From positions 1 through 63,702 of the forward strand of contig NZ_JACDCW010000005.1 in NCBI RefSeq assembly GCF_013817345.1: a stretch of DNA of 63,702 bases, in the 5' to 3' direction. This DNA comes from Methylibium sp. (lineage in GTDB: Bacteria > Pseudomonadota > Gammaproteobacteria > Burkholderiales > Burkholderiaceae_C). Under the pieces are notes generated by a model, which was not told the DNA's origin, ran no database searches, and saw nothing but the letters and a program-made list of their open reading frames with translations. Position 1 is the first letter of the stretch, and each line of letters begins with the position of its first letter. Positions 30,917 to 53,612 of the stretch are shown piece after piece. The translations under genes were made by a program, and so were the position numbers.

Positions 30917-31726
30917 ATGAACGTTCAAGCTTCGCATACGTCCCGCTCCACCCGTACGCCTTGGCAGATCCAGCTTGCAGTGCTGTTCGCGCTGCTGCAA
31001 CGGGACCTAAAAGCGCGGTTCGGCGGCCGTTGGATGGGCGCGTTCTGGATTTTTTTGGAGCCGATCGCGCATGTCACTCTGATGATGCTGCTCTTCGTTT
31101 ACCTGCGCGAGCGCTTGGTGCCGGGCGTACCCTTCGTTCTCTTCCTGATAACAGGCCTGTTTCCGTTTTTCATTTTTCGTGGAATGTCGCTGAGAGTCAT
31201 GGGAGCCATCGACGGCAGTCGCGGGCTATTCGGCTACCGTCAGGTCAAACCCATCGACGCCCTGCTAGTGCGCGGGGCGCTCGATGCCCTGCTCAACAGT
31301 GCCGTCTACGTGGTGTTTCTTGCAGCAATGGGTTGGCACGGCCTGCAATGGTTTCCAGACGAACCGCTGCAGCTCATCTTCGCCAGCGGCGTCCTGATAG
31401 TTCTTGGCTTCAGCCTAGGGCTGCTGTTCGCGGTGCTCACCGACGACCTGCCCCAACTGCGCGTGTTCATTCGCATCGCCTATCTTCCGCTCTACATAAT
31501 ATCCGGCGTGATCTTTCCGATCAACGCGCTTCCGCCAGCGGCGCTTCCCTGGTTGTTGTGGAATCCGATATTGCATCTGATCGAAGTACAACGGGGTTAC
31601 TTCTTCAAGCACTACCCGGTAATCGACCAAGTCAGTCTATCCTATCCGGCCGGGCTGGCCGTTCTGCTGTTGGCATCGGCGTTAAGCCTCTATCGCGTAC
31701 GACGCCACCGGCTGTTGGCAAGTTGA
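30917..31726 (+). CDS. kpsM: Capsule ABC transporter permease KpsM
   Basis: The inner-membrane half of an ABC-2 exporter that moves lipid-linked capsular polysaccharide to the periplasm. The 269-residue protein has an amphipathic N terminus followed by ALLQRDLKARFGGRWMGAFW and about six transmembrane helices, the KpsM/CtrC/BexB layout. It begins the kpsM-T-E-D run, 54 nt after rfbC, and lies 4 nt before kpsT. Confidence 0.94.
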   Translation: MNVQASHTSRSTRTPWQIQLAVLFALLQRDLKARFGGRWMGAFWIFLEPIAHVTLMMLLFVYLRERLVPGVPFVLFLITGLFPFFIFRGMSLRVMGAIDGSRGLFGYRQVKPIDALLVRGALDALLNSAVYVVFLAAMGWHGLQWFPDEPLQLIFASGVLIVLGFSLGLLFAVLTDDLPQLRVFIRIAYLPLYIISGVIFPINALPPAALPWLLWNPILHLIEVQRGYFFKHYPVIDQVSLSYPAGLAVLLLASALSLYRVRRHRLLAS

Positions 31727-31730
31727 ATCC

Positions 31731-32459
31731 ATGATCGAGTTGCGTGCCGTCACCAAGTCGTATCCGTCACCCATTGGTCGGCGTTATGTGTTTCGGGACC
31801 TTAATTTCCGTTTCCCTGATGATGCAAGCATCGGACTTATCGGTCCGAACGGCGCTGGAAAATCCACATTGATGCGCCTTCTTGGCGGCATCGACAGCCC
31901 CGACCATGGTCGCGTCGTCAGCGACGTGAACATTTCCTGGCCTGTCGGTTTGGCCGGCGGCTTGCAGGGCTCGCTCAATGGACGCGACAACGTGCGATTC
32001 GTGTGCCGAGTTTACGGCGCGACGGGTAACGCCATGCGTGAAAAAATGAAATTTGTCGAGGCGTTTGCTGAAATCGGTGAATACTTTAATCTCCCAGTCA
32101 AGTCGTACTCATCGGGTATGCGCACTCGGCTTGCTTTTGGTCTGAGCATGGCATTCGACTTCGACTATTACTTGATCGACGAAGCCACGGCTGTGGGAGA
32201 CGTGCAGTTTCGCCAGAAATGCCAAGAAGTGTTTCGCATGCGTCTTTCCAACGCCAAGCTGATTCTTGTGTCGCACAGCATGGCTGAAATTCGTCAATGG
32301 TGCGACGTGGTTGTTCTGGTCAAGGATGGAACGGCCACGCTGTTCGAAGACGTCGAAGCCGGCATCCTGGCCTATCAGGGACCGCTTGTGCCAACCCCGC
32401 CCCGCGCTAAACGTAAGGCCGTCGCATCTGGCGCTTCAGTTGCGCTCGCGGCTCTCTGA
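31731..32459 (+). CDS. kpsT: Capsule ABC transporter ATP-binding protein KpsT
   Basis: The ATPase partner of KpsM. The 242 residues have Walker A GPNGAGKSTLMRL, the signature region KSYSSGMRTRLAFGLSMA, Walker B YYLIDEATAVGD and the switch His in LVSHSMAEI. The length and lack of a C-terminal carbohydrate-binding domain fit KpsT rather than O-antigen Wzt, so export should not depend on a modified non-reducing end. Confidence 0.95.
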   Translation: MIELRAVTKSYPSPIGRRYVFRDLNFRFPDDASIGLIGPNGAGKSTLMRLLGGIDSPDHGRVVSDVNISWPVGLAGGLQGSLNGRDNVRFVCRVYGATGNAMREKMKFVEAFAEIGEYFNLPVKSYSSGMRTRLAFGLSMAFDFDYYLIDEATAVGDVQFRQKCQEVFRMRLSNAKLILVSHSMAEIRQWCDVVVLVKDGTATLFEDVEAGILAYQGPLVPTPPRAKRKAVASGASVALAAL

Positions 32460-32494
32460 GTAGTTCCTTACTGAACCTCTGCCCAAACTGACCC

Positions 32495-33601
32495 ATGAAC
32501 CAGCTTTTGGCGCTCAACCCGCGCCGCCTCAAACTGCTTCTCATTGCAGTGCCTCTCCTGCTGGCAGCGCTGTACTACACACTGCTCGCTGCAGACCGTT
32601 ATGTCAGCGAGTCGATCGTCACCGTGCGCCAAGCCAGTCAGGATGCAGGAGGTAGCGTGCCGGGTGTCGCGATGTTGCTGGGCGGCGTGAACCCGCCGGC
32701 ACGCGACGACACGCTGTACCTGCGCCAGTACATCCACTCCCTCGCCTTGCTGAACCGGTTGGATGTCGAACTCGATGTGCGCGGGCACTACGAGGCCGAG
32801 ACAGCCGACCCGCTCTACCGGCTGTACGACGGTGTGAGCCAGGAGTGGTTTCTGGAGTACTACCGCAACCGCGTCGAAGTGACTTTCGATGACCTCTCGG
32901 GCCTGCTTACGGTGCGGGTTCAGGGCTTCAAGCCGGTGTTCGCGCAAGCGCTAAATGCCGCCATCATGGAAGAGAGCGAACGCTTCGTGAACGGTTTTTC
33001 GCAGCGCATGGCACGCGAACAGATGGGCTTCGCCGAGACCGAACTCAAGGGTGCTGCGGAGCGTCTGCAGGAGGCCAAGTCCCAAGTGCTGGCCTTCCAG
33101 ACCAAAAATAAGCTGCTCGATCCGCTGACCCAGGCCGAAGCTAGCAGTGCGCTGACCGCAAAACTGCAAGCGATTCAGGCTGAGCAGGAGGCAGAACTGC
33201 GAAATGCGCAGACCTTTTTGAACGACAGCTCCTATCAGATCAAGGCTTTGCGCAGCCAGCTCGACGCGACCCGCTCCCAACTCGACATCGAACGCCTGCG
33301 CGCCACATCGGGTCGGACCGGCGAGCGTCTTAATCGGCTGGCCGCGGACTTTCAGGCGCTGATTCTGCAGGCCGGCTTTGCCGAAGACGCCTACAAGCTA
33401 TCGCTTGCGGCGGTGGAGAACGCTCGCATCGAAGCCTCTCGCAAGCTCAAGAGCCTGGTCGTGATCGAGCCACCCTCGCTGCCCGAGACGGCGCAGTATC
33501 CGCGCCGCCTCTACAACCTCGTGACACTGGCGGTGATCAGCCTGCTGCTTTACGGCATTGCGCGGCTTGTGATCGCCACCATCCGCGAGCATCAGGATTG
33601 A
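32495..33601 (+). CDS. kpsE: Capsule export inner-membrane protein KpsE
   Basis: A polysaccharide co-polymerase-like protein that links the KpsMT exporter to the outer-membrane channel. The 368 residues have transmembrane helices at each end (LKLLLIAVPLLLAALYYTLL and LVTLAVISLLLYGIARLVI) around a large periplasmic part with a coiled-coil region (about residues 170-320). The C-terminal YPRRLYNLVT motif is typical of KpsE/CtrB/BexC. One base separates it from kpsD. Confidence 0.93.
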   Translation: MNQLLALNPRRLKLLLIAVPLLLAALYYTLLAADRYVSESIVTVRQASQDAGGSVPGVAMLLGGVNPPARDDTLYLRQYIHSLALLNRLDVELDVRGHYEAETADPLYRLYDGVSQEWFLEYYRNRVEVTFDDLSGLLTVRVQGFKPVFAQALNAAIMEESERFVNGFSQRMAREQMGFAETELKGAAERLQEAKSQVLAFQTKNKLLDPLTQAEASSALTAKLQAIQAEQEAELRNAQTFLNDSSYQIKALRSQLDATRSQLDIERLRATSGRTGERLNRLAADFQALILQAGFAEDAYKLSLAAVENARIEASRKLKSLVVIEPPSLPETAQYPRRLYNLVTLAVISLLLYGIARLVIATIREHQD

Positions 33602-33602
33602 C

Positions 33603-35357
33603 GTGACCCACGCTGCACCAACGACCGCCATGACTGCATTCTTTCTTCCGCCACGCGCAGGCCTGCGCCGTTGGGGGTGCGCGTTGCTCCTCACGCTGAG
33701 TGCGGCGGCCCACGCGCAGGTCTTCGTGGACCCTCTTAACCTCAGCCCTCGCGGCCTGTCTGACGTATCACCCGCCCGCCCACCTGTGCCTGCTCAGGTA
33801 CCCGCGGCCACCGCGAGCGCTCCGCAGCAATCGCGCGAAACCAACCCGCTGCCCCCCGACCCCTTCACCTCTGCTCAGCCCGTGGTGTTCGGCTCGCAGA
33901 TCTTCACTGGGCGTTTCGGCTCCGAGGCCTTCAGCGGCTTTAACCCCGATTACCAGATCGCCGTGGGTGACCGCATTCACATCCGCATCTGGGGTGCTTT
34001 CAACTTCGACGAAACGCAGCCGGTCGATGCACAAGGCAATGTGTTTATCCCGAACGTCGGCCCGGTGAGCGTGCTGGGCGTGCGCAACGCGGAACTCACG
34101 CGCCAGGTCGAAGCCCAAGCCAAGCGCACCTTCCGCTCGAACGTGGGCGTGTACGCGACGCTCGAGGCAGCCCAGCCGGTGAAGATTTACGTGACTGGCT
34201 TCGTGCGCGCACCCGGCCTGTACGGGGGGTTGTCTTCGGACTCGGTGCTCGCCTACCTGGACCGCGCGGGCGGCATCGACCCCGACCGCGGCAGCTACCT
34301 CGAAGTGGACGTGCTGCGTGCCGGTAAGCTGCGCGCCAGGTTCAACCTCTACCGCTTTCTTCTCGATGGCCAGATCGCGCCTCTACAACTGCAAGACGGC
34401 GACACGATCGTGGCCAACTCACGCAAGCACACGGTGCTGGTACGCGGCGAGGTGCTGAACCCTTATCTGTTCGAGTTCAGCAAGCCAGTGATTAGCGCGG
34501 CCGATCTGGTGGCCGTGGCGCGGCCTCGGCCCAGCGCCACCCACCTAAGCATCGTACGAAAGGTGGGCGCCACAACTCGCAGCGAGTACCACCCGCTTAG
34601 CGCGGTAATTGACGTCACCATTCAAGACGGGGACGAAGTGCTGTTCACGTCGGACAAATATCCGGGCACCATCCTCGTTCGCGTTGAAGGCGCGCACTTG
34701 GGAGAAAGAACGCTGATCCTGCCCTATGGCGCCAAGCTGCAGGATGCTTTGGCGCGACTCAAGCCAGCCCCACAGGCCAATGTCGACGCGCTGCAGTTGT
34801 ACCGTCTCTCTGTAGCCGAGCGCCAAAAGGAAATGCTGGAAGCCTCGCTGCGCAGCCTGCAGACCTACGCGCTAACCTCGCGCTCCGCCACCAGCGAAGA
34901 GGCCGCGCTGCGCACGCGCGAAGCGGACCTCATCTTGCAGTTCATTGAGCGCGCTAGAGAAACAGAGCCACGCGGCCAGGTGCTGCTTGCAGACCGGGTA
35001 CAGGCGGTCGACACCTTACTCGAAGACGGCGACGTGCTGCGCGTGCCCGAGCGCAGCAATCTGGTCCTCGTAAGCGGCGAAGTCCTGCTGCCCAACGCTT
35101 TGGTATGGGACCCGGACGCGAAGGTGTCCGACTACATCGAGCGTGCCGGGGGATTCAACCAGGACGAGGACGACGCCCGCGTAGTCGTGTTGCGCCAAGA
35201 CGGCAGCGTGAGCGAGCCCGGCCGCAACCCGCTGAACCCCGGCGATGAAGTGATGGTGCTGCCCAAGATCGATTCGAAAAACATTGAGATCACTCGCGGT
35301 ATTACCCAAATTATTTATCAGCTTGCGGTGGCCGCCAAAGTCATTCTTGATTTCTAG
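33603..35357 (+). CDS. kpsD: Polysaccharide export outer-membrane protein KpsD
   Basis: An outer-membrane polysaccharide export (Wza/KpsD-type) protein. The 584 residues start with a signal peptide (LLLTLSAAAHAQ), a Pro-rich stretch, then the export domain with YQIAVGDRIHIRIWGAFN and several SLBB-like repeats (LVRGEVLNPYLFEF, LVRVEGAHLG, LVLVSGEVLLPNAL). GTG 33603 has AGGA five bases upstream; an ATG at 33630 would still give a short signal peptide. Last of the four export genes. Confidence 0.92.
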   Translation: MTHAAPTTAMTAFFLPPRAGLRRWGCALLLTLSAAAHAQVFVDPLNLSPRGLSDVSPARPPVPAQVPAATASAPQQSRETNPLPPDPFTSAQPVVFGSQIFTGRFGSEAFSGFNPDYQIAVGDRIHIRIWGAFNFDETQPVDAQGNVFIPNVGPVSVLGVRNAELTRQVEAQAKRTFRSNVGVYATLEAAQPVKIYVTGFVRAPGLYGGLSSDSVLAYLDRAGGIDPDRGSYLEVDVLRAGKLRARFNLYRFLLDGQIAPLQLQDGDTIVANSRKHTVLVRGEVLNPYLFEFSKPVISAADLVAVARPRPSATHLSIVRKVGATTRSEYHPLSAVIDVTIQDGDEVLFTSDKYPGTILVRVEGAHLGERTLILPYGAKLQDALARLKPAPQANVDALQLYRLSVAERQKEMLEASLRSLQTYALTSRSATSEEAALRTREADLILQFIERARETEPRGQVLLADRVQAVDTLLEDGDVLRVPERSNLVLVSGEVLLPNALVWDPDAKVSDYIERAGGFNQDEDDARVVVLRQDGSVSEPGRNPLNPGDEVMVLPKIDSKNIEITRGITQIIYQLAVAAKVILDF

Positions 35358-35395: not shown

Positions 35396-38300
35396 ATGAA
35401 GCGATTTGTATCTTGGCTCGCGCGGTCGCGCATGAAAAAGAAGCTTGAGAAGCTTCGGCGCAACCCGCAGAGTTTTTTTCTTGATCTGCGCCGTCTCCAG
35501 CCGCTGTGGCGGCGGCTAGGCATTCCGACACGCCACACCCGTACGCAGGCAAGCCCTTCACCGGAGCTATCGCTGGAGATACAGGGCGAACTCCAAGCGG
35601 AATTTCCCACCTTCGCCGCTTTTGACTTGGTGGGAGAAAACTGGTTCGCGGAGGAGCGCAAACCGATTGCGATCATGATCGGCTTTAATCCGTGGAAGCG
35701 GAAATTTGTCTCGAAATACCTGTTGGAATACCGCACCGCATATGTCCGCGGTCGGTCGTCTTGGAGACACCTAGAGCGGCAATGCGAATCGATTGAAGGA
35801 CTTTCATTCATAGTCTGGGGAATGAAGGATGAACCGGAGCTGGCGCACTTAGCGGAGCGACAAAACATTCCGCTGTTGCGGATGGAGGACGGGTTTATTC
35901 GCTCGGCCGAACTCGGTAGTCGTCATACGACCGCGCTTTCGTTGGTACTCGACAGTCGCGGCATCTACTTCGACGCTTCAAAGCCATCGGATCTTGAGAA
36001 GTTTTTAAATGAGCACGACTTTTCGACTACGCCAGCCCTACTGGACAGTGCCGCAGCCTTGATGCAGTTAATGCGCCACCTCGGTATCAGTAAGTACAAC
36101 CTCGGTAGCCTCCGAGCCGTCGAAGATGTGCTGGGCCCCCGACTTAAACGACGGATCCTTGTCATAGGACAAGTCGAGTCGGACGCTTCAATACTCCACG
36201 GCCTCGGAGACGGTTGGACTAATCTTCGCTTGATCGAGATGGCGCGACAAGAAAATGAGGATGCGGACATCATCTACCGACCGCATCCGGATGTCACGCA
36301 AGGCTTTCGAGCGAATACCCACACTTTGGCAGCATTATGCAGGCAGTGCCGCGTCTTGACCGAGGATGTAGCGTTAGCAGATCTGTTTCGAGCTGTCGAT
36401 CGGGTCTACACACTCACCTCGCTGAGTGGCTTCGAAGCGCTGATTCACGGCCTTCCAGTTACCGTAATTGGTGCGCCTTTCTACGCCGGCTGGGGTCTTA
36501 CTGACGACCGCATGGCAGTCCAGAGGCGAACGCGTCGCCTGACAATTGAGCAGCTATTCTGTGTGGCTTACCTTTTGTATCCGCGCTATCTTGGGTCACT
36601 TTCCGATCCAGTACGCGGCTGCCTATCAGCCATGCTTTCAGTGACAGCACAGCGACGGCAAGCCCTGAATGCGAGCATTACCTCACATCTTGTGCAAACG
36701 GAACCCACACTGCTCCTGCAGTCTGAATATTGGCCTGCGGCTTTTCGCCCGGCACTGTATCCATTTATTTCCGCCACAATGGCGCAAAAACTCAGTGCCT
36801 CACTGCCGTTGCAACGGATATTTATGCGTTGTAAAGGTGATCACCACCAACGCTTTGTCGCTTATTTTCTTGCTGGCCAGTTAAAGGACGCAGCATCCGT
36901 TGGCTCGTTGTTCAGCACGCTGCGCACATGTATCAAGCTTGAACATTACGGCGAACTGCTGAGAAATCTACTGATTATCAAACCACTACCCGGACTCATG
37001 GAGCATTGGGCTTGGTATTGTGAAGAATCCGGTCATCTGGAGGAAGCGCGAAAAACGTTAGATCATCTAGCCTACGGAACTGTTTATTCTGTTTCACCTG
37101 ATTCTGAGCGATCTTTTGAAATTCAGAATCAAAAACGCGCACTTCGAGTGGCGGAATTTGATCTTCGTCGCCGCGATTTAAACGGGGCGTACTTGACACT
37201 GAATCGGCTTCTGCTATCCGGTTTCATTAGCGGAGATGTGATAAACGGTTTAGTAGAGATCGCGCGCCTTAGATTTGATTTCAGTTCCGCTGCAGCCTTG
37301 CTGGACTTTTTCAATCGATACGATCCCAATTGGAAGTTAGGCAGAAACTTCGGATTGCAAGCTCAGTGCGCTGCACTGGCAAATGATCCGGATCAAGCGA
37401 GCGAAGCAATGTCAGTTGCTGTCACTTTGAATCCGCAATGGCTTGGCTCGTTCGAAAACTTTACTAGAGTTCTTACAAACGCTTTTGGAAAACTTCCCTT
37501 CATCGACGCTCTTCAGGCAAGCATAGAGAATCAAGAACTGGGCTCGCCGATCAATCGTGCAGTTCGCTTGATTGCCAGCTTCAAGGCGCGGGAGGCGGAA
37601 AGTTTGTTACGTTCACATGAACCGAAGCCTGCTGATCAAATTCATTACTGGGCAGCACTCAGCCTAGCGTACAGCTATCAAGGCAAGCTCGATGAAGCGA
37701 AAGCGCTTATGGTAGAACTTTTAAAGCGACGGCCGGTTAATCTATTGTATAGAGAAGCACTTCGCCTCGCTGTCGTGAAGAATGATTATGACTGGGGCGG
37801 TGATCTGCTTAACCAAGTAATATCTCTTGGCATTGATGTTGGTGACATGCATCGTCGTAAAGTGTATCTAGGAATGGGGAAAATAAAATCGTCGTTTCGA
37901 ACTTTTCGCGACATGAAGAAAACGAGAAAAGTGCTTGGCGCGTATTTTGGCGACCGCTACATTCAATCGCTGGATCGAATCTATGACACGGGCGAAAACA
38001 ATGTGGCGATTCTTGGATTTTTCGGGCCTGGCGATGAATTGCGCTTTTCTAGTTATTATGGTCGACTACGGGAACGGGTAAAAAATAGTAAGTTAACAGT
38101 AACTTGCGACCCGCGATTGTTCACTCTTTTTAAGCGGTCCTTTCCAGCTCTGAAATTCGTCGCGTCTAAACGAGCCCGAAACTTAGCCTCACTTGACGAT
38201 TTTAACGATTTCATATCCTTGCCTGGCTCTGATTTAATTGATGTTTTTGACAACAATGGTTGGAGCGCAGCGAACGATGCTGACCAAACCTTGCTAGCCA

Positions 38301-38944
38301 CGGATTTCCTGGGTGATTTTATTGATGGCTATCACTCATTCAATGGAACTCCGTACCTGATTCCTGACCCTGTTGGTGTCGCTCGCTGGCGAGATCGACT
38401 CAAGCCATGGGCTGAGAAGCCGCTGGTGGGACTGAGTTGGCGCAGCAGTCTGACGACCTATTCCCGCAACGAACACTACTTCAATATCGACGAACTCGGG
38501 CCGCTCTTTGAGGTGCCCGACGTCCAGTTCGTTAATCTCCAATACGATGAGTGCTCGGCGGAATTGACTCAGCTGGAGGCCAAATATCCGGGTCGAGTGC
38601 TTAACTTCCCTGATCTGGATCAGTTCAACGACTTAGACGGCGTTGCCGGCTTAATGAGTTGCATGGATTTGATCATTGCACCGGCCACTACAGTCGTCGA
38701 GTTAGCCGGTGCCGTGGGTCGGCCGACCCTGCTGTTGTCTAACTCTTCGGAACTGCATTGGCGCAAGCGTCCGGGAACCTCAGTTGACGTTTGGCACCGT
38801 TCCGTCACACACGTGGAAGGTGGAAAACTCGGCGACAAGACTTCACTGATCGATGCGGCGGCACAGATCTTGGTACGCCATCCGCTACTCACCACCTGTA
38901 AGGACATGGCGCCTCGAAAGAGCTTTTGGTCGCTACAGCAATGA
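35396..38944 (+). CDS. KpsC-like transferase / repeat / glycosyltransferase fusion (1182 aa)
   Basis: A large three-part protein. Residues about 60-410 match one KpsC-type domain, with MEDGFIRSAELGS (the EDG motif), LDSRGIYFDASKPSDLE, IGQVESDASILHG, YRPHPDV (the HP motif) and LTSLSGFEALIHG...GWGL. Such GT-B domains use CMP-Kdo or related CMP sugars. Residues about 440-850 are helical and TPR-like. Residues about 860-1182 resemble GT9/GT41-like GT-B proteins that follow TPRs (FFGPGDELRFSSYYGRL, LVGLSWRSSL, MDLIIAPATTVVELAGAVG). It sits between kpsD and a pyruvyl transferase and overlaps that gene by 4 nt. Codon use is AT-richer than in kps genes, suggesting transfer. It may be a dual transferase adding pseudaminic acid or Kdo plus another sugar; this is inference. 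Confidence 0.8.
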   Translation: MKRFVSWLARSRMKKKLEKLRRNPQSFFLDLRRLQPLWRRLGIPTRHTRTQASPSPELSLEIQGELQAEFPTFAAFDLVGENWFAEERKPIAIMIGFNPWKRKFVSKYLLEYRTAYVRGRSSWRHLERQCESIEGLSFIVWGMKDEPELAHLAERQNIPLLRMEDGFIRSAELGSRHTTALSLVLDSRGIYFDASKPSDLEKFLNEHDFSTTPALLDSAAALMQLMRHLGISKYNLGSLRAVEDVLGPRLKRRILVIGQVESDASILHGLGDGWTNLRLIEMARQENEDADIIYRPHPDVTQGFRANTHTLAALCRQCRVLTEDVALADLFRAVDRVYTLTSLSGFEALIHGLPVTVIGAPFYAGWGLTDDRMAVQRRTRRLTIEQLFCVAYLLYPRYLGSLSDPVRGCLSAMLSVTAQRRQALNASITSHLVQTEPTLLLQSEYWPAAFRPALYPFISATMAQKLSASLPLQRIFMRCKGDHHQRFVAYFLAGQLKDAASVGSLFSTLRTCIKLEHYGELLRNLLIIKPLPGLMEHWAWYCEESGHLEEARKTLDHLAYGTVYSVSPDSERSFEIQNQKRALRVAEFDLRRRDLNGAYLTLNRLLLSGFISGDVINGLVEIARLRFDFSSAAALLDFFNRYDPNWKLGRNFGLQAQCAALANDPDQASEAMSVAVTLNPQWLGSFENFTRVLTNAFGKLPFIDALQASIENQELGSPINRAVRLIASFKAREAESLLRSHEPKPADQIHYWAALSLAYSYQGKLDEAKALMVELLKRRPVNLLYREALRLAVVKNDYDWGGDLLNQVISLGIDVGDMHRRKVYLGMGKIKSSFRTFRDMKKTRKVLGAYFGDRYIQSLDRIYDTGENNVAILGFFGPGDELRFSSYYGRLRERVKNSKLTVTCDPRLFTLFKRSFPALKFVASKRARNLASLDDFNDFISLPGSDLIDVFDNNGWSAANDADQTLLATDFLGDFIDGYHSFNGTPYLIPDPVGVARWRDRLKPWAEKPLVGLSWRSSLTTYSRNEHYFNIDELGPLFEVPDVQFVNLQYDECSAELTQLEAKYPGRVLNFPDLDQFNDLDGVAGLMSCMDLIIAPATTVVELAGAVGRPTLLLSNSSELHWRKRPGTSVDVWHRSVTHVEGGKLGDKTSLIDAAAQILVRHPLLTTCKDMAPRKSFWSLQQ

Positions 38945-40011
38945 ATCTCTTGCTGACAACCTATCCCGCTCAACGATCACGTAACGTCGGTGATCGACTG
39001 ATCACCGACTCAGCGCTAGACCTAATCAAGGCTCGACATCCACTTTACGCCCCGGATGTCCTATTCCGTGAAACCGATTTAGACAACCTGACGGATAAAA
39101 GGATCGATTCTATCGTTGCACCCGGTTTTTCGGTCAGCGATGGTGTATATCGGGGGACCTTTCGCCTGTTCTCAGACCTCAGTCGAATGAAAAACTTCTT
39201 CCCCATCGGTTGCAGCTTTCAGCAGCCGCTACAGCCAGGAGCATCGTTTTCTGATTTTAGGTATGGAAGTCAAACAGCTGATTTTCTCTCGTTGCTTGCA
39301 GAGCGATTTGGACCTTATCCATGCAGGGATGCCCTGATCGTTAAGGTTCTAACAAATAACAATATTCCAGCAGTATATTGTGGTGATCTGAGCCTTTATG
39401 AGGAACGCGCGCTCAATCGCCATTTCGTGCCGCCCGACCCTGTGCAATCGGCGGTATTCACAGTTGGACATCTGCCAAACTACACGATCCAGTCGATCGA
39501 TGTACTCAACCTCATGCGCGACCTGCTTCCGAAGGCAGATCTTTTCGTTTCTTTTCACTCAAAACCGTCTGAGCATTCTATAAAAATTGCGGAGCATGCC
39601 GTTGAACTTGGTTTTTCCGAGCTGCGCCCGTACGGTTCGTCGAAAAACTTACAAAAACTGTATGCAAGCATTGACGTTCATCTAGGGTACAGACTACATG
39701 GGCATCTTTTTTTTCTGCGCAGTAGGAAACCTTCTATCTTACTGGCCGAAGATGTGCGATCTTATGGTTTTTCACAAACGTCTGACATTTCCACGGGATG
39801 TTTTTTGGCTTTTTCGCCTGAAACCCTAGAGGCAGATAGGGATACGCCACATCGCGCTATCGAATTTCTGCAACAAGAAATTTCGAATCGCTTTTTTTCC
39901 TATCGGGCATGTCTTTCAAATATAGAACGCACCTATCACGAAATAATCGTTCCCTATTTTAATAATCTTGCCAGAAACTTGTCTGTGCTCGACGTTGAAC
40001 TTTCTCTCTAA
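38941..40011 (+). CDS. Polysaccharide pyruvyl transferase family protein
   Basis: A 356-residue protein of the pyruvyl-transferase family, which adds ketal pyruvate from phosphoenolpyruvate to sugars. Visible family features are the start NLLLTTYPAQRSRNVGDRLI, IDSIVAPGFSVSDG, IPAVYCGDLSLYEE and the conserved tail region LYASIDVHLGYRLHGHLFFL followed by SRKPSILLAED. ATG 38941 overlaps the previous stop as ATGA. AT-rich composition matches its upstream neighbour. Some family members act in unrelated roles, so the reaction is not certain. Confidence 0.83.
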   Translation: MNLLLTTYPAQRSRNVGDRLITDSALDLIKARHPLYAPDVLFRETDLDNLTDKRIDSIVAPGFSVSDGVYRGTFRLFSDLSRMKNFFPIGCSFQQPLQPGASFSDFRYGSQTADFLSLLAERFGPYPCRDALIVKVLTNNNIPAVYCGDLSLYEERALNRHFVPPDPVQSAVFTVGHLPNYTIQSIDVLNLMRDLLPKADLFVSFHSKPSEHSIKIAEHAVELGFSELRPYGSSKNLQKLYASIDVHLGYRLHGHLFFLRSRKPSILLAEDVRSYGFSQTSDISTGCFLAFSPETLEADRDTPHRAIEFLQQEISNRFFSYRACLSNIERTYHEIIVPYFNNLARNLSVLDVELSL

Positions 40012-40023
40012 TCATTTATTTTT

Positions 40024-41019
40024 ATGTATAACCAAGTTATTCTTGTTACTGGAGGCACAGGCTCTTTTGGAAACACCTTTGTTCCCATGACTCTAGCCAA
40101 ATATAATCCAAAAAAAATTATTATTTACTCACGAGACGAAATGAAACAATGGGAAATGGCAAAGAAATTTGTGAATGATCCTCGTGTTCGCTTTTTTATC
40201 GGTGACGTCCGTGACCGCGATCGGCTATGCCGGGCACTCGATGACGTCGACTATGTGGTTCATGCTGCAGCAACAAAAATTGTTCCAACTGCAGAATACA
40301 ACCCGTTCGAGTGCGTCAAGACAAATATTTTTGGCGCCATGAATCTAATCGATGCCTGCATCGACAAAAAGGTAAAACGAGTGGTGGCGCTGTCGACCGA
40401 CAAAGCGAGCAGTCCGGTCAACTTGTATGGCGCAACAAAACTCGCATCGGATAAGCTCTTCGTCGCGGGAAATTCTTATGCTGGGGGCCATGACACCAGA
40501 TTTTCGGTGGTCCGTTATGGAAATGTAATGGGTTCGCGCGGCTCTGTAATTCCGTTCTTTTTATCCATCAAAGATAAGGAAGTGCTACCCATCACAGATT
40601 CTCGCATGACGCGCTTCATGATTACTTTAGAGCAGGGGGTCGAATTAGTCTGGCACGCGTTCGATGACATGGAAGGCGGTGAAATTTACGTTAAAAAAAT
40701 TCCCTCAATGAAGGTGACGGACATTGCCAATGCCGTCGCCCCGGAAGCCGAGCTTGACTTCGTGGGAATTCGACCTGGTGAAAAACTTCACGAACAGATG
40801 ATTGGCGCTGAAGACTCCTTTCATACCTACGAGTATCCGGAGCACTTCAAGATCCTGCCGGCGATTCATAAATGGAGCGAGGACACCGTTCGTATTGGCA
40901 GCGGAACCAAAGTGCCCGAGGGCTTCGTGTACGCCAGCGACAGCAACGACGTCTGGATGGGGCCGCAGGAGTTGCGGACTTGGATCGATCAAAACCGATC
41001 GAAAATCGGGACAATCTGA
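40024..41019 (+). CDS. pseB: UDP-N-acetylglucosamine 4,6-dehydratase (5-inverting), PseB
   Basis: The first step of CMP-pseudaminic acid synthesis, giving a UDP-4-keto-6-deoxy-L-sugar. The 331-residue SDR has ILVTGGTGSFGNTFV, SRDEMKQWEM, VVHAAATKIVPTAEYNPFE, ALSTDKASSPVNLYGATK with the catalytic residues, and FSVVRYGNVMGSRGSVIP. The membrane domain found in WbpM is absent. The 5' half is AT-rich and the 3' end GC-rich, so composition shifts within the gene. pseC begins immediately after the stop. Confidence 0.95.
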   Translation: MYNQVILVTGGTGSFGNTFVPMTLAKYNPKKIIIYSRDEMKQWEMAKKFVNDPRVRFFIGDVRDRDRLCRALDDVDYVVHAAATKIVPTAEYNPFECVKTNIFGAMNLIDACIDKKVKRVVALSTDKASSPVNLYGATKLASDKLFVAGNSYAGGHDTRFSVVRYGNVMGSRGSVIPFFLSIKDKEVLPITDSRMTRFMITLEQGVELVWHAFDDMEGGEIYVKKIPSMKVTDIANAVAPEAELDFVGIRPGEKLHEQMIGAEDSFHTYEYPEHFKILPAIHKWSEDTVRIGSGTKVPEGFVYASDSNDVWMGPQELRTWIDQNRSKIGTI

Positions 41020-42177
41020 ATGATTCCGTATGGCCGGCAAGATATCCGCCAAGAAGACATCGACGCCGTTGTCGAGGTCCTGCGGTCTGACTACCTCACG
41101 CAGGGCCCGGCAGTGCCGCGCTTCGAGGCTGCGGTGGCTCAGCATTGCGGCGTCGAGCATGCGATAGCCGCCAACAGTGCCACGTCGGCGCTGCACATCG
41201 CGTGTCTTGCACTCGATCTTGGCCCGGGCGATTGGCTCTGGACCAGCCCGATCACTTTTGTCGCGTCTGCCAATTGCGGCCTCTATTGCGGCGCTCAAGT
41301 CGATTTTGTTGACATCGACCCCCGGACCTACAACCTGTGTCCGCAAGCCCTGGAGCGCAAGCTGGCCGAGGCGCAAAAGAAAGGGCGTCTGCCAAAAGTG
41401 GTCGTCCCCGTTCACTTGTGCGGCCAACCCTGCGACATGCGGGCCATTCATGTACTGGCTCAACGCTATGGTTTCAAGGTTGTGGAGGATGCATCGCACG
41501 CGATCGGTGGCAAGTACGAGAGCGCGCCGGTAGGAAACTGCCGCTACAGCGACATCACCGTCTTTAGCTTCCATCCGGTCAAGATCATCACGACTGCCGA
41601 AGGCGGCATGGCGGTGACAAACGATCCGAAACTTGCCGAGCGCATTGGCCTGCTCCGCAGTCATGGCATCACCCGCGATCCTGCCCACATGACCCGTGAA
41701 TCCGATGGCCCTTGGTACTACCAGCAGATCGATCTGGGCTTCAACTATCGCCTGACGGAGCTGCAGGCCGCGTTGGGCCTGACTCAACTGGAACGGCTCG
41801 ACGCTTACGTCGCGCGCCGCCACGCTTTGTCGCTGCGCTATGACGAGTCGCTGGCCGCCCTGCCGCTCACCTTGCCGTGGCAGCATCCGGACGGGGCCTC
41901 CGCCCGTCATCTCTACGTCGTTCGACTGACTTTGGATCGCATAGCCGTGAGCCACCGACAAGTGTTCGAAGCCCTGCGTGAACAAGGGATCGGCGTGAAC
42001 CTGCACTACATTCCCGTGCATACCCAGCCCTATTACGAACGGCTCGGTTGCGTACAAGGCCGGTACCCCGAGGCGGAACGCTATTACGCCGAAGCGATCA
42101 GCCTTCCGATGTATGCCACCCTTACTGAGGCGCAACAGGACATGGTGGTTGAAGCTTTGCGCCACGCAATGGCCTGA
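41020..42177 (+). CDS. pseC: UDP-4-amino-4,6-dideoxy-AltNAc transaminase, PseC
   Basis: A PLP-dependent aminotransferase of the DegT family, second step of the pseudaminic acid route. The 385 residues contain YGRQDIRQEDIDAV, VEHAIAANSATSALHIACLA, VVEDASHAIGG and VFSFHPVKIITTAEGGM with the PLP-binding Lys. The stop overlaps pseF as TGATGA. Confidence 0.95.
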   Translation: MIPYGRQDIRQEDIDAVVEVLRSDYLTQGPAVPRFEAAVAQHCGVEHAIAANSATSALHIACLALDLGPGDWLWTSPITFVASANCGLYCGAQVDFVDIDPRTYNLCPQALERKLAEAQKKGRLPKVVVPVHLCGQPCDMRAIHVLAQRYGFKVVEDASHAIGGKYESAPVGNCRYSDITVFSFHPVKIITTAEGGMAVTNDPKLAERIGLLRSHGITRDPAHMTRESDGPWYYQQIDLGFNYRLTELQAALGLTQLERLDAYVARRHALSLRYDESLAALPLTLPWQHPDGASARHLYVVRLTLDRIAVSHRQVFEALREQGIGVNLHYIPVHTQPYYERLGCVQGRYPEAERYYAEAISLPMYATLTEAQQDMVVEALRHAMA

Positions 42178-42878
42178 TGAGACTCGCCGTCATCCCCGCC
42201 CGAGGCGGAAGCAAGCGCATTCCGCGGAAAAACATCAAATCGTTCTGCGGCAAGCCCATCATGGCATGGTCTATCGAAGCCGCGTTGGCAAGCGGCTGTT
42301 TCGACGATGTGATCGTCTCGACCGACGACGAAGAGATTAGGACCGTTGCGCGCGAATGGGGCGCGTCGGTGCCGTTTCTCCGGCCGGCCATGTTGTCTGA
42401 CGACCACGCAGGCACCCTTCCGGTGATTCGCCACGCCATCGAGTGGCATTGCGCCAAAGGCCGCACACCTGATGCAGTGTGCTGCGTATACGCCACCGCA
42501 CCCTTTGTCACCGCAATCGATCTCCAGCTCGGACTGGAAATGCTGCAGTCCACCGGCGCTGCTTATTCCTTCTCTGTCACGGACTACGAATTTCCCATTC
42601 AGCGGGCGATCCGGGTAAAGGCCAATGGACGGGTGAGCATGTTCTATCCCGAGCACTGGAACACCCGATCGCAAGACCTCGAACAAGCGTTTCACGATGC
42701 CGGGCAGTTTTATTGGGGCCAAGCCTCAGCCTGGTTGGCAGAGACACCCATCTTCTCGACCGACTCCGCGCCGATCATGCTGCCGCGTCACCGCGTCCAA
42801 GATATCGACACGTTGGATGACTGGACGCGGGCCGAGTGGTTGTTCAAGGCACAGCAGGCATCGTCCGCGGCAGACTGA
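42177..42878 (+). CDS. pseF: Pseudaminic acid cytidylyltransferase, PseF
   Basis: The final step: activates pseudaminic acid with CTP to CMP-pseudaminic acid. The 233-residue protein has AVIPARGGSKRIPRKNIKSF and DDVIVSTDDEEIRTVAREWG, typical of CMP-nonulosonate synthetases, and the PseF-type FHDAGQFYWGQ motif. Its stop shares one base with the pseG start (TGATG). Confidence 0.95.
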   Translation: MRLAVIPARGGSKRIPRKNIKSFCGKPIMAWSIEAALASGCFDDVIVSTDDEEIRTVAREWGASVPFLRPAMLSDDHAGTLPVIRHAIEWHCAKGRTPDAVCCVYATAPFVTAIDLQLGLEMLQSTGAAYSFSVTDYEFPIQRAIRVKANGRVSMFYPEHWNTRSQDLEQAFHDAGQFYWGQASAWLAETPIFSTDSAPIMLPRHRVQDIDTLDDWTRAEWLFKAQQASSAAD

Positions 42879-43990
42879 TGACTCCTGCTGTTGCCTTTCG
42901 CACCGACGCCTCGTTGCAGATTGGCAGCGGACATTTTCTGCGCTGCCTGTCGCTCGCCACCGCGCTCCGGGAGCGGGGAGCTGATTGCCGCTTCATCTGT
43001 CGCGAGCATCCAGGACATCGGATCGATATTGCACGCGAGCGTGGGTTCAGTGTGGCGACGTTACCTGGCACTGCTGATAAAGACGCGCTTGACCTCCCAT
43101 GGAAGCAATTGCCCGCTCACGCCGCTTGGCTAGGCTGTGACTGGCGCACGGACGCCGACCAGACTGTCGCCGCTTTGGATCAGCAAGTCACCGACTGGTT
43201 GGTGGTGGATCATTACGCGCTCGACGGAGCTTGGGAAGCGCAGCTGCAGCGCAGTTGCCGTCAGCTCATGGTGATCGACGACCTGGCCGACAGGCCGCAC
43301 CACTGCGACCTCCTGCTGGATCAGAACCTGGGCCGCCAGCGCAGTGACTACGCAAGCTTGGTATCAAAAAATTGTTCCGTACTTGCCGGCCCGGCTTATG
43401 CGTTGCTGCGCCCGGAATTCGCCGCGCAACGTGCCGAGAGCCTGCACCGCCGAAGTTTTTCGCTACCGCGGCACCTGCTCATTACCATGGGTGGAGGCGA
43501 TCAACGCAATGTCACGAAACGCGTGCTGGACGCGTTGCGGTTGTGTCGTTTGCCGCCGGACTTTCGCATTACCGTGGTCATGGGGCGGGATGCACCTTGG
43601 TTGGAGAGTGTGCAACGGCGAGCGGCAGATATGCCATGGACTTGCAAGGTTCGAGTCGACGTCAGCGATATGGCACACCTGATGACGGAGAGTGATCTTT
43701 CCATTGGCGCCGCAGGCGGAACATCGTGGGAACGGTGCTGCGTCGGGCTGCCCAGCATGCTCCTCGTGCTTGCCGATAATCAACGCCGTGGCGCGCAAGC
43801 ACTGGTCGGAGCGGGAGCGGCCGTTTTGCTTTCGGACGGACCAGATCTGGCTGACCAGCTATCTGAACATTTAGCAGCCCTGCTGAAGGGCGACGCCCTG
43901 TCCACGATGAGCAACGCAGCACGTGCCGTCACAGACGGCCTTGGCGTCGAACGAGTTTTGCCCTACCTCCTGGAGCCCTCCCGTGCCTGA
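42878..43990 (+). CDS. pseG: UDP-2,4-diacetamido-2,4,6-trideoxy-altropyranose hydrolase, PseG
   Basis: Removes UDP in the fourth step. The GT-B-like protein has 370 residues starting MTPAVAFRTDASLQIGSGHF, with the GHFLRCL motif carrying the catalytic His, VIDDLADRPHHCDLLLDQN, LLITMGGGDQRN and GAAGGTSWERCCVGLPSM. ATG 42878 is coupled to the pseF stop, and the tail overlaps pseH by 8 nt. Confidence 0.94.
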   Translation: MTPAVAFRTDASLQIGSGHFLRCLSLATALRERGADCRFICREHPGHRIDIARERGFSVATLPGTADKDALDLPWKQLPAHAAWLGCDWRTDADQTVAALDQQVTDWLVVDHYALDGAWEAQLQRSCRQLMVIDDLADRPHHCDLLLDQNLGRQRSDYASLVSKNCSVLAGPAYALLRPEFAAQRAESLHRRSFSLPRHLLITMGGGDQRNVTKRVLDALRLCRLPPDFRITVVMGRDAPWLESVQRRAADMPWTCKVRVDVSDMAHLMTESDLSIGAAGGTSWERCCVGLPSMLLVLADNQRRGAQALVGAGAAVLLSDGPDLADQLSEHLAALLKGDALSTMSNAARAVTDGLGVERVLPYLLEPSRA

Positions 43991-44504
43991 TGGCGATCAA
44001 AGCGACGATCGCTTAAGGCCCATGGTCAATCAGGACCTTTCAGCAGTGCTGGTCTGGCGCAATCATCCGGACGTAGGCTCGTTCATGTTCAACCAAGCGG
44101 AAATTACGCCGCAGGAACACCAGCAATGGTTCAAACGCACATCGATGGAAGAAGGCCGACATTTGCTTATATTCGAGTGCGACGGCCGGCCCCGAGGTTT
44201 TGTCAACGTGCACATGCGCGCGGCCGATCGCATCGCTGATTGGGGGTTTTATGTGGCACCCGACGCGGTAAGAGGGACCGGCCGGCGATTGGGTGATACT
44301 GCTTTGAACTATACGTTTAGTTTTCTCGAAGCGCACAAGTTGTGCGCTCGGGCACTGGCTTATAACCGTAAGTCCATCAAGTTTCATCTCGCGCTGGGCT
44401 TCCAGCAGGAGGGCGTTTTGCGCGATCAGCATTTTGATGGTCACGGCTACCACGATGTAGCTTGTTTCGGCCTGTTGAGCGGTGAATGGCACCGGAGCAA
44501 ATGA
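43983..44504 (+). CDS. pseH: UDP-4-amino-4,6-dideoxy-AltNAc N-acetyltransferase, PseH
   Basis: A GNAT-fold acetyltransferase, third step. The 173-residue protein has LRPMVNQDLSAVLVWRNHPD, a common start for sugar GNATs, APDAVRGTGRRLGD (acetyl-CoA loop) and YNRKSIKFHLALGF. GTG 43983 lies after a TGGAG and gives an 8-nt overlap with pseG. The stop overlaps the pseI start as ATGA. Confidence 0.9.
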   Translation: MPDGDQSDDRLRPMVNQDLSAVLVWRNHPDVGSFMFNQAEITPQEHQQWFKRTSMEEGRHLLIFECDGRPRGFVNVHMRAADRIADWGFYVAPDAVRGTGRRLGDTALNYTFSFLEAHKLCARALAYNRKSIKFHLALGFQQEGVLRDQHFDGHGYHDVACFGLLSGEWHRSK

Positions 44505-45568
44505 AGGTCACCATGTCCAACAATCCAAGTATCGAGATCGCCGGGCGCCGCATCGCTGTCGATGTGCCTCCCTTCGTCATCGCCGAGTTGTCCGCCAACC
44601 ACAACGGCAAGCTAGAGACTGCGCTCAAGATCATCGAAGCCGCCAAGGTGGCAGGCGCCGACGCGATAAAGCTTCAAACTTATCGCCCGGACACGATAAC
44701 GCTCGATTCAGACGCGGCGGAGTTTCAGATTCGCGGCGGTCTTTGGGACGGCCGGACGCTCTACGAGCTGTACCGGGAAGCGCACATGCCGTGGGAATGG
44801 CACGCGCCGCTGTTCGCTCGCGCGCAGGAACTGGGCATTACGATTTTCAGTTCCCCCTTCGACCCTACAGCAGTCGACTTGCTTGAGAGTCTCGGCGCTC
44901 CCGCCTACAAGATCGCCTCGTTCGAAGCGGTGGATTTACCGCTGATCAAGTACGTGGCGCGTACCGGCAAACCCATGATCATCTCTACCGGCATGGCGGA
45001 TGCCGAAGAGATTCAGGAAGCCATCGACGCGGCCCGCGCCGGCGGCTGCACGCAACTCGCTGTACTGCATTGCGTGAGCGGCTATCCCGCGCCCGCTGCC
45101 GATTACAACCTGCGCACCATGAGCGACATGATGTCGCGCTATGGTGTGGTCACCGGCTTGTCGGACCACACACTGGACAACACCACCGCGATTGCCAGCG
45201 TAGCGCTCGGCGGCTGCATCATCGAGAAGCACTTCACTCTCGATCGTAGCGGCGGTGGGCCTGACGACAGTTTTTCGCTTGAGCCGAACGAGCTGCAAGC
45301 CTTGTGTCGCGGCGCGCGCACCGCTTGGAGCGCCTTGGGCCAAGTGGATTACGGACGAAAGTCCAGCGAGCAAGGAAACGCGCAGTTTCGAAGATCGCTT
45401 TACTTTGTCAAACCACTTCGTGCGGGCGATGTAGTGACGCCGGATGCGGTTCGCAGCGTTCGTCCCGGCAGTGGCCTGCCACCCAAATTTCTCGATCGCG
45501 TAATCGGTAGGAAAGTCAGGAACGACACGCCGATGAATACGCCGGTTTCGCTGGATCAACTTTTGTAG
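44501..45568 (+). CDS. pseI: Pseudaminic acid synthase, PseI
   Basis: Condenses the trideoxy sugar with phosphoenolpyruvate. The 355 residues have a NeuB-type TIM barrel with FVIAELSANHNGKLETALKI and DAIKLQTYRPDTITLD, SDHTLDNTTAIASVALGG and IEKHFTLDRSGGGPDDSFSL, plus a C-terminal SAF antifreeze-like domain (RPGSGLPPKFLDRVIGRKV). ATG 44501 overlaps the pseH stop as ATGA and follows GGAG; ATGs at 44486 and 44513 are alternatives. It completes the pathway. Confidence 0.95.
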   Translation: MKVTMSNNPSIEIAGRRIAVDVPPFVIAELSANHNGKLETALKIIEAAKVAGADAIKLQTYRPDTITLDSDAAEFQIRGGLWDGRTLYELYREAHMPWEWHAPLFARAQELGITIFSSPFDPTAVDLLESLGAPAYKIASFEAVDLPLIKYVARTGKPMIISTGMADAEEIQEAIDAARAGGCTQLAVLHCVSGYPAPAADYNLRTMSDMMSRYGVVTGLSDHTLDNTTAIASVALGGCIIEKHFTLDRSGGGPDDSFSLEPNELQALCRGARTAWSALGQVDYGRKSSEQGNAQFRRSLYFVKPLRAGDVVTPDAVRSVRPGSGLPPKFLDRVIGRKVRNDTPMNTPVSLDQLL

Positions 45569-52480: not shown

Positions 52481-52534
52481 GGGGGCCTGTATTGACCGTT
52501 TCGGCGTCGCGGCGAGCTCGGTGGCAGCCAGTGA

Positions 52535-53164: not shown

Positions 53165-53180
53165 CGCGTGCCCCTCGCTG

Positions 53181-53612
53181 TCAAACCAGCACGACGCAGT
53201 GGCGCTTCTGGGCGCCGGGCACGGCGTCCAGCGCAACGCGCTGATCGAGGCTGACGAAACGGCCTCCGTTCTCCACAGCCAGTGCCAGCAGGTAGGCATC
53301 GGCGATCTGGCGCGGGCCGAGCAGCCGCAGCCAGTCGAAGCGGCCCGGCTCCAGCAGGTTCACGGCGTCGGGCCAGAACTCGTGGCTGCGATCGGCCGCT
53401 GCTTCGCTGAGCCGCTGGGCTACCTCGGCGGTCGGCAAGGCGTTCGGGTAACTCGGCTGCGACATGATGCGCACACAGCCGTTCTGCGTGATGGGACACG
53501 ACGCCCAGCCTTGTCCGACGTGCCGCGAGAGCCAATCGGTCGCCCGCGCATGGTGGACATGGCTGGCATCGAGCAGAGCGATCAGGACGTTGACGTCGAG
53601 CAAGGCCCTCAT
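53181..53612 (-). CDS. vapC: PIN-domain RNase toxin, VapC family
   Basis: A 143-residue PIN protein. The Asp residues expected at the active site are in MRALLDVNVLIALLDASH, ATDWLSRH, and QIADAYLLALAVEN (with Asp) and GRFVSLDQR. It follows the antitoxin by 4 nt. Its place in the middle of a polysaccharide gene run, same strand and with small gaps, suggests cotranscription with the glycan genes. Confidence 0.88.
   Translation of the reverse strand: MRALLDVNVLIALLDASHVHHARATDWLSRHVGQGWASCPITQNGCVRIMSQPSYPNALPTAEVAQRLSEAAADRSHEFWPDAVNLLEPGRFDWLRLLGPRQIADAYLLALAVENGGRFVSLDQRVALDAVPGAQKRHCVVLV

What the first reader, a model, noticed from the sequence alone, without database searches (positions are those of the whole stretch)
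35396..38944. KpsC-like domain fused to a TPR-like region and a second glycosyltransferase fold
The protein joins one complete KpsC-type domain (EDG, HP and GWGL motifs kept), a helical repeat region and a GT9/GT41-like half in 1182 residues. Normal KpsC has two KpsC-type domains and no TPR. It is encoded next to a complete CMP-pseudaminic acid pathway and in addition to ordinary kpsC and kpsS. A plausible job is transfer of pseudaminic acid, or of pseudaminic acid plus a second sugar, by a processive dual enzyme. KpsS1 of Acinetobacter baumannii is, to my recollection, a related transferase that uses CMP-pseudaminic acid, which makes the idea concrete. I have not seen this exact architecture named.
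Basis: partly seen in the sequence, partly recalled or inferred. Interest (0 to 1): 0.75.

Follow-up and report, generated by a model that had tools for sequence, protein, structure and literature searches.

The report
Two-headed capsule enzyme shared with phages
A long protein in a bacterial capsule gene cluster joins two sugar-adding enzymes by a helical linker, and the same three-part protein is carried by phages of root-nodule bacteria, which suggests that phages may swap or rebuild the sugar coat of their hosts.

Summary
ORF 35396-38944 (1182 aa, intact) is a KpsC/GT107-like module (residues ~91-422), an all-helical TPR-like region (~431-855) and a GT9-fold GT-B domain (~864-1165), in an ABC-transporter capsule locus beside a complete pseBCFGHI set. 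I found five other full-length members: a Sinorhizobium chiapasense K-antigen/pse locus, the isolated Sinorhizobium phage RHph_X2_30, and three IMG/VR phage contigs, where it follows depolymerase-like fibre genes. Two of those three contigs also carry a fibre 61% identical to protein H of phage 16-3, which (by a paper title) is involved in adsorption to S. meliloti 41. N- and C-domain trees agree, catalytic residues are kept, and among the three IMG/VR copies dN/dS is below 0.1 in all three parts. Best reading: a dual-glycosyltransferase polymerase of a pseudaminic-acid-containing K antigen, carried by phages to change host capsule. The CMP-pseudaminate donor is inferred: the donor-site residues known from KpsC are also kept, so CMP-Kdo is not excluded. 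The polymerase reading resembles known TPR capsule polymerases (Cps3D/Cps7D) and phage-encoded Wzy polymerases: a new variant of a known kind. I found no description of this module combination or its phage carriage in the open-licence papers searched.

The parts
35396..38944 (+). Fused gene F: KpsC-like module + helical (TPR-like) region + GT9-fold glycosyltransferase, 1182 aa
35666..36661 (+). N-domain (residues ~91-422), KpsC/GT107-like; E164-D165-G166, K233-Y234-N235, Q259xxxD263, H297-P298-D299 kept
   Evidence: own clade in tree
36686..37960 (+). Middle region (residues ~431-855), all-helical, TPR-like; weak TPR Pfam match at 750-781
   Evidence: low to moderate confidence
37985..38890 (+). 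C-domain (residues ~864-1165), GT9-fold GT-B; GPGDE motif at residues 877-881
38926..40011 (+). PF04230 polysaccharide pyruvyl transferase-like protein, overlaps the end of F
40024..41019 (+). pseB
   Evidence: TIGR03589 above cut-off
41020..42177 (+). pseC
   Evidence: TIGR03588 above cut-off
42177..42878 (+). pseF (CMP-pseudaminate synthetase)
   Evidence: TIGR03584 above cut-off
42836..43990 (+). pseG
   Evidence: TIGR03590 above cut-off
43923..44504 (+). pseH
   Evidence: TIGR03585 above cut-off
44486..45568 (+). pseI, the only copy found in the genome assembly
   Evidence: TIGR03586 above cut-off
45574..47628 (+). kpsC, two PF05159 modules; C-module has altered catalytic motifs
47632..49026 (-). 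kpsS-like gene
   Evidence: PF05159; weak NF050054 below cut-off
30917..35357 (+). Capsule export genes: ABC-2 permease, ABC ATPase, KpsE-like (weak Wzz match), KpsD-like (Poly_export)

Best explanation
F is a cytoplasmic dual-glycosyltransferase capsule polymerase for an ABC-transporter-exported, pseudaminic-acid-containing K antigen. The KpsC-like N-domain transfers a CMP-activated ulosonic acid, most likely CMP-pseudaminate made by the adjacent pse genes, by KpsC-type double displacement (nucleophile D263, base E164). The GT9-fold C-domain adds a second sugar, giving a Sug-Pse disaccharide repeat like the [GlcA-Pse] and [Glc-Pse] antigens of sinorhizobia. The helical middle holds the growing chain and makes synthesis processive, as the TPR of Cps3D/Cps7D does. 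Phages carry the same enzyme near tail genes and probably use it to change the host capsule after infection. Shown here: architecture, catalytic residues, gene context, co-inheritance and purifying selection on all three parts, phage carriage. Inferred: donor sugars, polymerisation, TPR role, capsule conversion.
For: N-domain is KpsC by sequence and fold with catalytic residues kept (roles from PMC10148158 passages). C-domain has GT9 fold. Complete pse set in the same locus, single PseI match in the genome (4 of 4 candidates scored), no other relative of the C-domain reported in the genome (which scored 4 of 7 candidates). Between exporter and kpsC the only glycosyltransferase-like genes, PseG aside, are F and a PF04230 protein. 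S. chiapasense has the same fusion in a locus with pseBCFGHI and KPS exporter genes. Rm41, whose antigen is [GlcA-Pse]n (PMC4881576 Table 1), has a stand-alone relative of the N-domain that also shares the N-terminal extension, in its pse locus. A sugar plus a Kdo-like acid is a common sinorhizobial repeat (PMC4881576). TPR plus two transferases in one chain is an established capsule-polymerase design (PMC11666461 passages). Similar N and C trees and dN/dS 0.045-0.096 in N, M and C among the three IMG/VR phage copies. IMG/VR copies follow depolymerase-like fibre genes (3 of 3), 2 of 3 contigs with a fibre 61% identical to 16-3 H. Integrase found in 2 of 4 phages.
Against: The KpsC donor-site residues tabulated (Y93, K133, Y134, D196) are kept in F, and the set does not separate Pse-locus from poly-Kdo-type proteins. 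The K/R that binds the acceptor in E. coli KpsC (Lys202) is R in F and X2_30 but A, E, H or G in the other four fused members, in a loop where the alignment is unsure. The Pse association is not confined to one clade: NGR234 makes [Glc-Pse], but its second KpsC-like gene, ~9 kb from its pse genes, groups elsewhere with K101 and an IMG/VR gene. Four of six full-length members have no pse gene in the DNA held. In S. chiapasense the fused gene lies about 12 kb from pseI with an IS66 transposase between. The middle region is modelled poorly. The C-domain donor is unknown; the solved GT9 matches are mainly heptosyltransferases. No assay data.
Confidence: 0.5

Rival explanations
1. The N-domain is a beta-Kdo transferase. 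F makes a sugar-Kdo polymer, or its N-domain makes up for the altered C-module of the window KpsC, and the pse genes feed another transferase (the PF04230 protein, the kpsS-like protein or an enzyme elsewhere).
For: Donor-site and catalytic residues of KpsC kept. The window KpsC C-module lost QxxxD, KYN and HP. Several S. fredii K antigens are hexose-Kdo (PMC4881576 Table 1). KpsS1, 30% identical to E. coli KpsS, shows that a KpsS-like protein can be the Pse transferase (PMC12887879 passages). No pse genes seen with the phage copies.
Against: F N-domain lies outside both canonical KpsC module clades. Full pse set in both bacterial loci. The stand-alone relative with the same N-terminal extension is in the Rm41 pse locus, while Rm41 also has a separate gene of the type found in the poly-Kdo strain 1021.
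Confidence: 0.26
2. F is a protein glycosyltransferase of FlmG type. The TPR-like region binds a protein (flagellin, or a tail fibre in the phages), the C-domain adds the first sugar and the KpsC-like domain extends it.
For: TPR + GT-B order matches FlmG, which modifies flagellins with pseudaminic acid in Caulobacter (PMC7591256 passages). GT domains of the C-domain kind are frequent in viral contigs (544 of 574 stretches; presence of TPR not checked there). The IMG/VR copies sit beside tail-fibre genes.
Against: Both bacterial copies sit in capsule export loci. Fusion to a KpsC-type capsule module. FlmG itself was not compared by sequence.
Confidence: 0.12
3. F caps, branches or trims a polymer made by other enzymes (a terminator or decorating enzyme rather than the polymerase).
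For: A terminating enzyme with a TPR-like bundle is described in Klebsiella O4, and WbbB is named there as a terminating prototype (PMC11231755 passage); the WbbB Kdo module matches the N-domain fold at Z ~16.
Against: No other sugar polymerase among the capsule-locus proteins scanned. Two complete transferase domains in one chain fit a disaccharide repeat better.
Confidence: 0.12

Closest known systems
KpsC (dual beta-Kdo transferase of group 2 capsules, GT107)
   Same: N-domain sequence, fold (Z 25.2-26.7) and catalytic residues
   Different: One module instead of two; fused to helical repeats and a GT9-fold domain; outside both KpsC module clades
Cps3D / Cps7D, TPR-containing dual-transferase capsule polymerases of App (PMC11666461)
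   Same: Two transferase domains and a TPR region in one chain of 1138 and 1277 aa in a group 2-type capsule system
   Different: Their transferases are CgoT (glycerol-phosphate) and CgaT (galactose) with the TPR at the N-terminus; here KpsC-like and GT9-fold with the helical region between
KpsS1 (GT118) retaining pseudaminyltransferase of Acinetobacter baumannii (PMC12887879)
   Same: A KpsC/KpsS-type homologue; CMP-Pse context
   Different: KpsS1 is 30% identical to KpsS and lacks the WbbB-equivalent glutamate; F keeps the EDG glutamate
FlmG flagellin glycosyltransferase (PMC7591256)
   Same: TPR followed by a GT-B domain; pseudaminic acid
   Different: No KpsC module described; acts on flagellins. 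Sequence not compared here
KrkA (GT140 Kdo transferase + ribosyltransferase, PMC12887879)
   Same: Ulosonic-acid transferase fused to a second sugar transferase in one capsule enzyme
   Different: Different GT family; no TPR region in the passages seen
Prophage wzy1Ph/wzy2Ph and epaAB of A. baumannii (PMC13228068, PMC12053666)
   Same: Phage genes that change the host capsule polymer, or its pseudaminic acid
   Different: Wzy polymerases and sugar-modifying enzymes, not a KpsC-type fusion in an ABC-type capsule system

Membership tests
KpsC | Two KpsC-type modules in one protein | tested here: not met
   One PF05159 match, residues 150-398
KpsC | KpsC fold and catalytic residues (EDG, QxxxD, KYN, HP) | tested here: met
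KpsC | CMP-Kdo as donor | not testable with these tools
   Donor-site residues kept but not discriminating
KpsS1 / GT118 pseudaminyltransferase | Lacks the WbbB-equivalent catalytic glutamate (a YE-motif glutamate is proposed instead) | tested here: not met
   F keeps E164 in EDG; feature from PMC12887879 passage
GT9 heptosyltransferase | GT9 GT-B fold of the C-domain | tested here: met
   Z 16.6-18.3, rmsd 3.2-4.4, 252-274 residues
GT9 heptosyltransferase | Sequence match to the family model | tested here: not met
   No Pfam glycosyltransferase family at E <= 0.1 for the C-domain
GT9 heptosyltransferase | ADP-heptose donor | not testable with these tools
   no assay
TPR capsule polymerases (Cps3D/Cps7D) | TPR region plus two transferase domains in one chain | tested here: met
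   the TPR identity of the middle rests on low-confidence modelling and weak Pfam hits
TPR capsule polymerases (Cps3D/Cps7D) | TagF-like domain | tested here: inconclusive
   TagF only a partial match, 140 residues, Z ~10
FlmG | TPR then GT-B domain | tested here: met
   with the same caveat on the TPR label
FlmG | Sequence relation to FlmG and flagellin as acceptor | not tested
   FlmG sequence not obtained
Phage capsule-converting gene | Carried by temperate phages | tested here: met
   Integrase match in contig 2791355094_000007 and annotated integrase in RHph_X2_30: 2 of 4 phages; none among the few proteins scanned of the other two
Phage capsule-converting gene | Lysogeny changes the capsule | not testable with these tools
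   no experiment

The most novel reading that the evidence does not exclude
The fusion is a mobile capsule polymerase. Temperate phages of Sinorhizobium and relatives carry a complete two-transferase polymerase for ABC-exported K antigens near their receptor-binding fibres and use it to replace the host K antigen after infection. Capsule loci in two bacteria share the same gene by transfer. Its KpsC-like half is a second lineage of retaining pseudaminyltransferases, with KpsC-type rather than KpsS1-type catalysis.
Probability: 0.32. Interest if true: 0.82.

Novelty: new variant of a known kind. Interest (0 to 1): 0.63.

Why it matters
Capsule conversion by phage-encoded polymerases is published for Wzy enzymes in Acinetobacter. 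A phage-borne polymerase for ABC-transporter capsules would extend it to a second assembly pathway and to the K antigens of rhizobia. It would also give a defined enzyme for two open questions: which transferase builds the Sug-Pse repeats of rhizobial K antigens, and whether KpsC-type (GT107) chemistry handles CMP-pseudaminate.

Tried and rejected
Origin of F from the window's own kpsC: rejected. The F N-domain falls outside both KpsC-N and KpsC-C clades and groups with phage and rhizobial single modules.

Frameshift or chance fusion: rejected. Single intact ORF, and the same order in five other full-length members.

Donor assignment from residues: tried, led nowhere. Catalytic and donor residues are the same in Pse-locus and poly-Kdo-type proteins. 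A column scan gave eight positions conserved in at least 5 of 6 Pse-set proteins and rare in the KpsC/core set, among them G80, W83, A115 and H177. The set is small and includes one phage copy, the row winKpsC_C was dropped from the comparison, five of the eight lie near the N-terminus, and I draw no conclusion.

Search for the fusion in genome contigs: two scans, none confirmed (8 and 151 stretches). The patterns were narrow, so this is weak evidence of absence. Whole-genome searches showed no other full-length copy in 1730 genome look-ups: 149; 399; 398; 399; 385. The sets overlap, searches used E <= 1e-60, and at most 4 or 2 (the others) first-look candidates per genome were scored.

A further viral contig (L054) matched 55 residues of one phage copy near its end; no ORF of 100 aa or more there matched the window capsule proteins, so it was not counted.

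Hosts of the IMG/VR contigs: megablast of 20 kb of one contig to plasmids gave no match; 20 kb of another to phages gave 7 records with short matches, among them phage 16-3 and AP-16-3. Hosts stay unknown.

Flagellin Maf enzymes as users of pseudaminic acid: no PF01973 match in the own genome, but the control genomes that rang were archaea only and the link of PF01973 to Maf is recalled, so inconclusive.

Solved-structure search by sequence for the C-domain profile: only E 0.57 (KrkA) and 0.82. Foldseek's first hit by E-value for the C-domain was a chain of a plant NDH-PSI complex, with GT9 enzymes next. In the viral model library the best hits of the whole model were short phage proteins, some named TPR or GT9.

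Literature: searches gave no description of a KpsC-TPR-GT fusion or of a phage-borne KpsC-like polymerase. They cover open-licence PMC papers only, and I saw listings, abstracts or passages, no whole paper.

Full report
What is there. ORF 35396-38944 encodes 1182 residues without a break. Residues 97-402 match KpsC crystal sequences at E 9.9e-56, and Pfam sees one PF05159 copy. An AlphaFold2 model of the whole protein is only fair (mean pLDDT 66, 11 sequences), but its N-part superposes on KpsC at Z 25.2-26.7 and its C-part on GT9 heptosyltransferases at Z 15.9-17.9. The C-domain modelled alone with 45 sequences has pLDDT 83 and matches GT9 structures, WaaC, heptosyltransferase II and TibC among them, at Z 16.6-18.3 over 252-274 residues. 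The ~425 residues between are predicted all-helical, with TPR profile hits below the curated cut-off. TPR-type structures appear in the list only at Z ~10-12 with large rmsd, so the TPR label is likely, not proven.

Context. The gene lies after ABC permease, ATPase, KpsE- and KpsD-like genes and is followed by a PF04230 protein, then pseB, C, F, G, H, I, kpsC and a reversed kpsS-like gene. All six pse proteins pass their NCBIfam equivalog cut-offs, and PseI has one match in the assembly. GC falls from 0.63 in kpsD to 0.55, 0.47 and 0.51 in the three parts of F, 0.46 in the PF04230 gene and 0.48 in pseB, which suggests acquired DNA.

Relatives. In PLSDB 240 of 72,556 records match, but only one covers at least 80% of F: S. 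chiapasense. Its 1159-aa protein has the same three parts and lies in a locus with pseBCFGHI and KPS export genes, about 12 kb from pseI with an IS66 transposase between. In the phage collection 2 of 50,697 records match, and one covers the whole protein: RHph_X2_30 of S. americanum, 440 of 1094 aligned positions identical. In IMG/VR three contigs carry full-length copies. Identities to F over the alignment of six are 39% (X2_30), 33% (S. chiapasense) and 34-35% (IMG/VR). The S. chiapasense protein is 61% identical to one IMG/VR copy. No other full-length copy appeared in 1730 genome look-ups, with overlapping sets and only the best 2 to 4 candidates per genome scored.

The carriers are phages. 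PHROGs matches include endolysin, tail protein, integrase and depolymerase in contig 2791355094_000007, terminase and tail fibres in 2671180406_000001, and portal, tape measure and tail fibres in 3300048852_000046 (selected proteins only). In each of the three the gene next upstream of F matches the EPS-depolymerase family phrog_4250, as best or lesser hit. In two of three, a further fibre is 61% identical over ~705 residues to tail fibre H of phage 16-3. A 2004 paper, whose title I saw only as a citation in PMC10460002, says that H and RkpM of S. meliloti 41 are involved in adsorption of 16-3. In RHph_X2_30 the gene adjoins the tail, endolysin and capsid region, and an integrase is annotated. 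None of the window pse proteins matched an ORF of 100 aa or more in the phage DNA held: 40 kb of each IMG/VR contig and positions 1785-69699 of X2_30; PseB was also absent from the three whole IMG/VR records.

Evolution. In a tree of 44 selected KpsC-type modules the six fused N-domains form one clade (96/90), with F and X2_30 together (97/88) and S. chiapasense with the three contigs (100/100). Canonical KpsC-N and KpsC-C modules form separate clades. The C-domain tree of 31 selected rows shows the same split, with weaker support for F + X2_30 (87/76); its fused group also holds a second, long-branched S. chiapasense protein of 785 aa. The simplest account is one fusion inherited as a unit. 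Between the three IMG/VR copies dN/dS is 0.045-0.096 in N, middle and C parts; against S. chiapasense it is 0.083-0.092 where computable (3 of 9 comparisons, the rest saturated). All three parts are under constraint.

Mechanism. KpsC works by double displacement with D160 of QxxxD as nucleophile and E66 of EDG as base (PMC10148158, passages). F has the equivalents D263 and E164 and the KYN and HP motifs, and so do all five full-length relatives. The HP histidine is 194 by my count of the E. coli sequence; the passage as held reads His94. The C-domain keeps an invariant GPGDE motif at the place where, from recall, GT9 enzymes carry a catalytic aspartate. Two active-looking domains with a helical region resemble Cps3D and Cps7D, where the TPR is needed for processive elongation from the linker (PMC11666461, passages). 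Known sinorhizobial K antigens are often a sugar plus a Kdo-like acid: Rm41 [GlcA-Pse], NGR234 [Glc-Pse]; others are HH103 poly-Pse and 1021 poly-Kdo (PMC4881576, Table 1). Rm41 carries a stand-alone 453-aa relative of the F N-domain, 40% identical over residues 2-402 of F, in its pse locus. It also has a gene that groups with that of 1021. I therefore favour a Sug-Pse polymerase.

Against. Donor and catalytic residues do not differ between Pse-locus proteins and poly-Kdo-type proteins, so CMP-Kdo remains possible. The acceptor-site K/R of KpsC is R in F and X2_30 but A, E, H or G in the other four fused proteins, where the alignment is unsure. The second KpsC-like gene of NGR234, a [Glc-Pse] strain, groups away from F and from the Rm41 gene, so use of pseudaminic acid does not track one clade. 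The window KpsC C-module has changed nucleophile and donor motifs, so F might supply Kdo instead. The association of the full fusion with pse rests on two bacterial loci, and the phage copies have no pse genes in the DNA held. Protein glycosylation in the manner of FlmG (PMC7591256, passages) is a live rival for the phage copies, since GT domains of this kind are common in viral contigs.

Novelty. Phage-encoded Wzy polymerases and pseudaminate-modifying enzymes that alter capsule are published (PMC13228068 and PMC12053666, abstracts). I found no account of a KpsC-TPR-GT9 fusion or of a phage-borne polymerase for ABC-type capsules in searches, which cover open-licence PMC papers only. I file it as a new variant of a known kind. 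The organism of the window was not identified.

Noticed in passing
45574-47628: The C-terminal module of the window KpsC has QxxxE, RHD and HL in place of QxxxD, KYN and HP, so it may be inactive or altered. In three genomes of the same genus the KpsC matches fetched were to an N-type module in ORFs of 326-479 aa.
   Followed up: partly
38926-40011: PF04230 polysaccharide pyruvyl transferase-like gene overlaps the end of F; lowest GC of the locus (0.46). It may add a pyruvate ketal or act as another transferase.
   Followed up: no
L039:11989-16071, L082:11950-16074: Two Sinorhizobium pse loci carry 1360-1374 aa proteins with the same kind of N-domain but a different remainder with at most weak TPR signal (Pfam run on L039 only); another domain combination.
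   Followed up: partly
L062:14098-16134, L064:2862-4904: Tail fibres of two IMG/VR phage contigs are 61% identical over full length to protein H of phage 16-3, upstream of the fused gene.
   Followed up: yes
L041:11992-13308 and 13107-15836: On a Shinella plasmid a stand-alone KpsC-like gene precedes a protein with a GT2-type domain, a Capsule_synth-like part and weak TPR matches; another modular arrangement.
   Followed up: no
L094:28767-31124: In S. chiapasense the fused gene is followed by a 785-aa protein whose C-part is a distant relative (26%) of the F C-domain.
   Followed up: partly
L084:11893-13195: In NGR234 the KpsC-like gene next to the exporter appears as two ORFs (169 and 242 aa), so it may be broken there.
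   Followed up: no
50594-56556: Another polysaccharide cluster on the minus strand: 4,6-dehydratase-like, sugar transferase, aminotransferase, UDP-sugar dehydrogenase.
   Followed up: no
Viral contigs, L096-L175: GT domains related to the F C-domain kind are very common in viral contigs (544 of 574 stretches confirmed, 80 kept); their role in phages is unclear.
   Followed up: no
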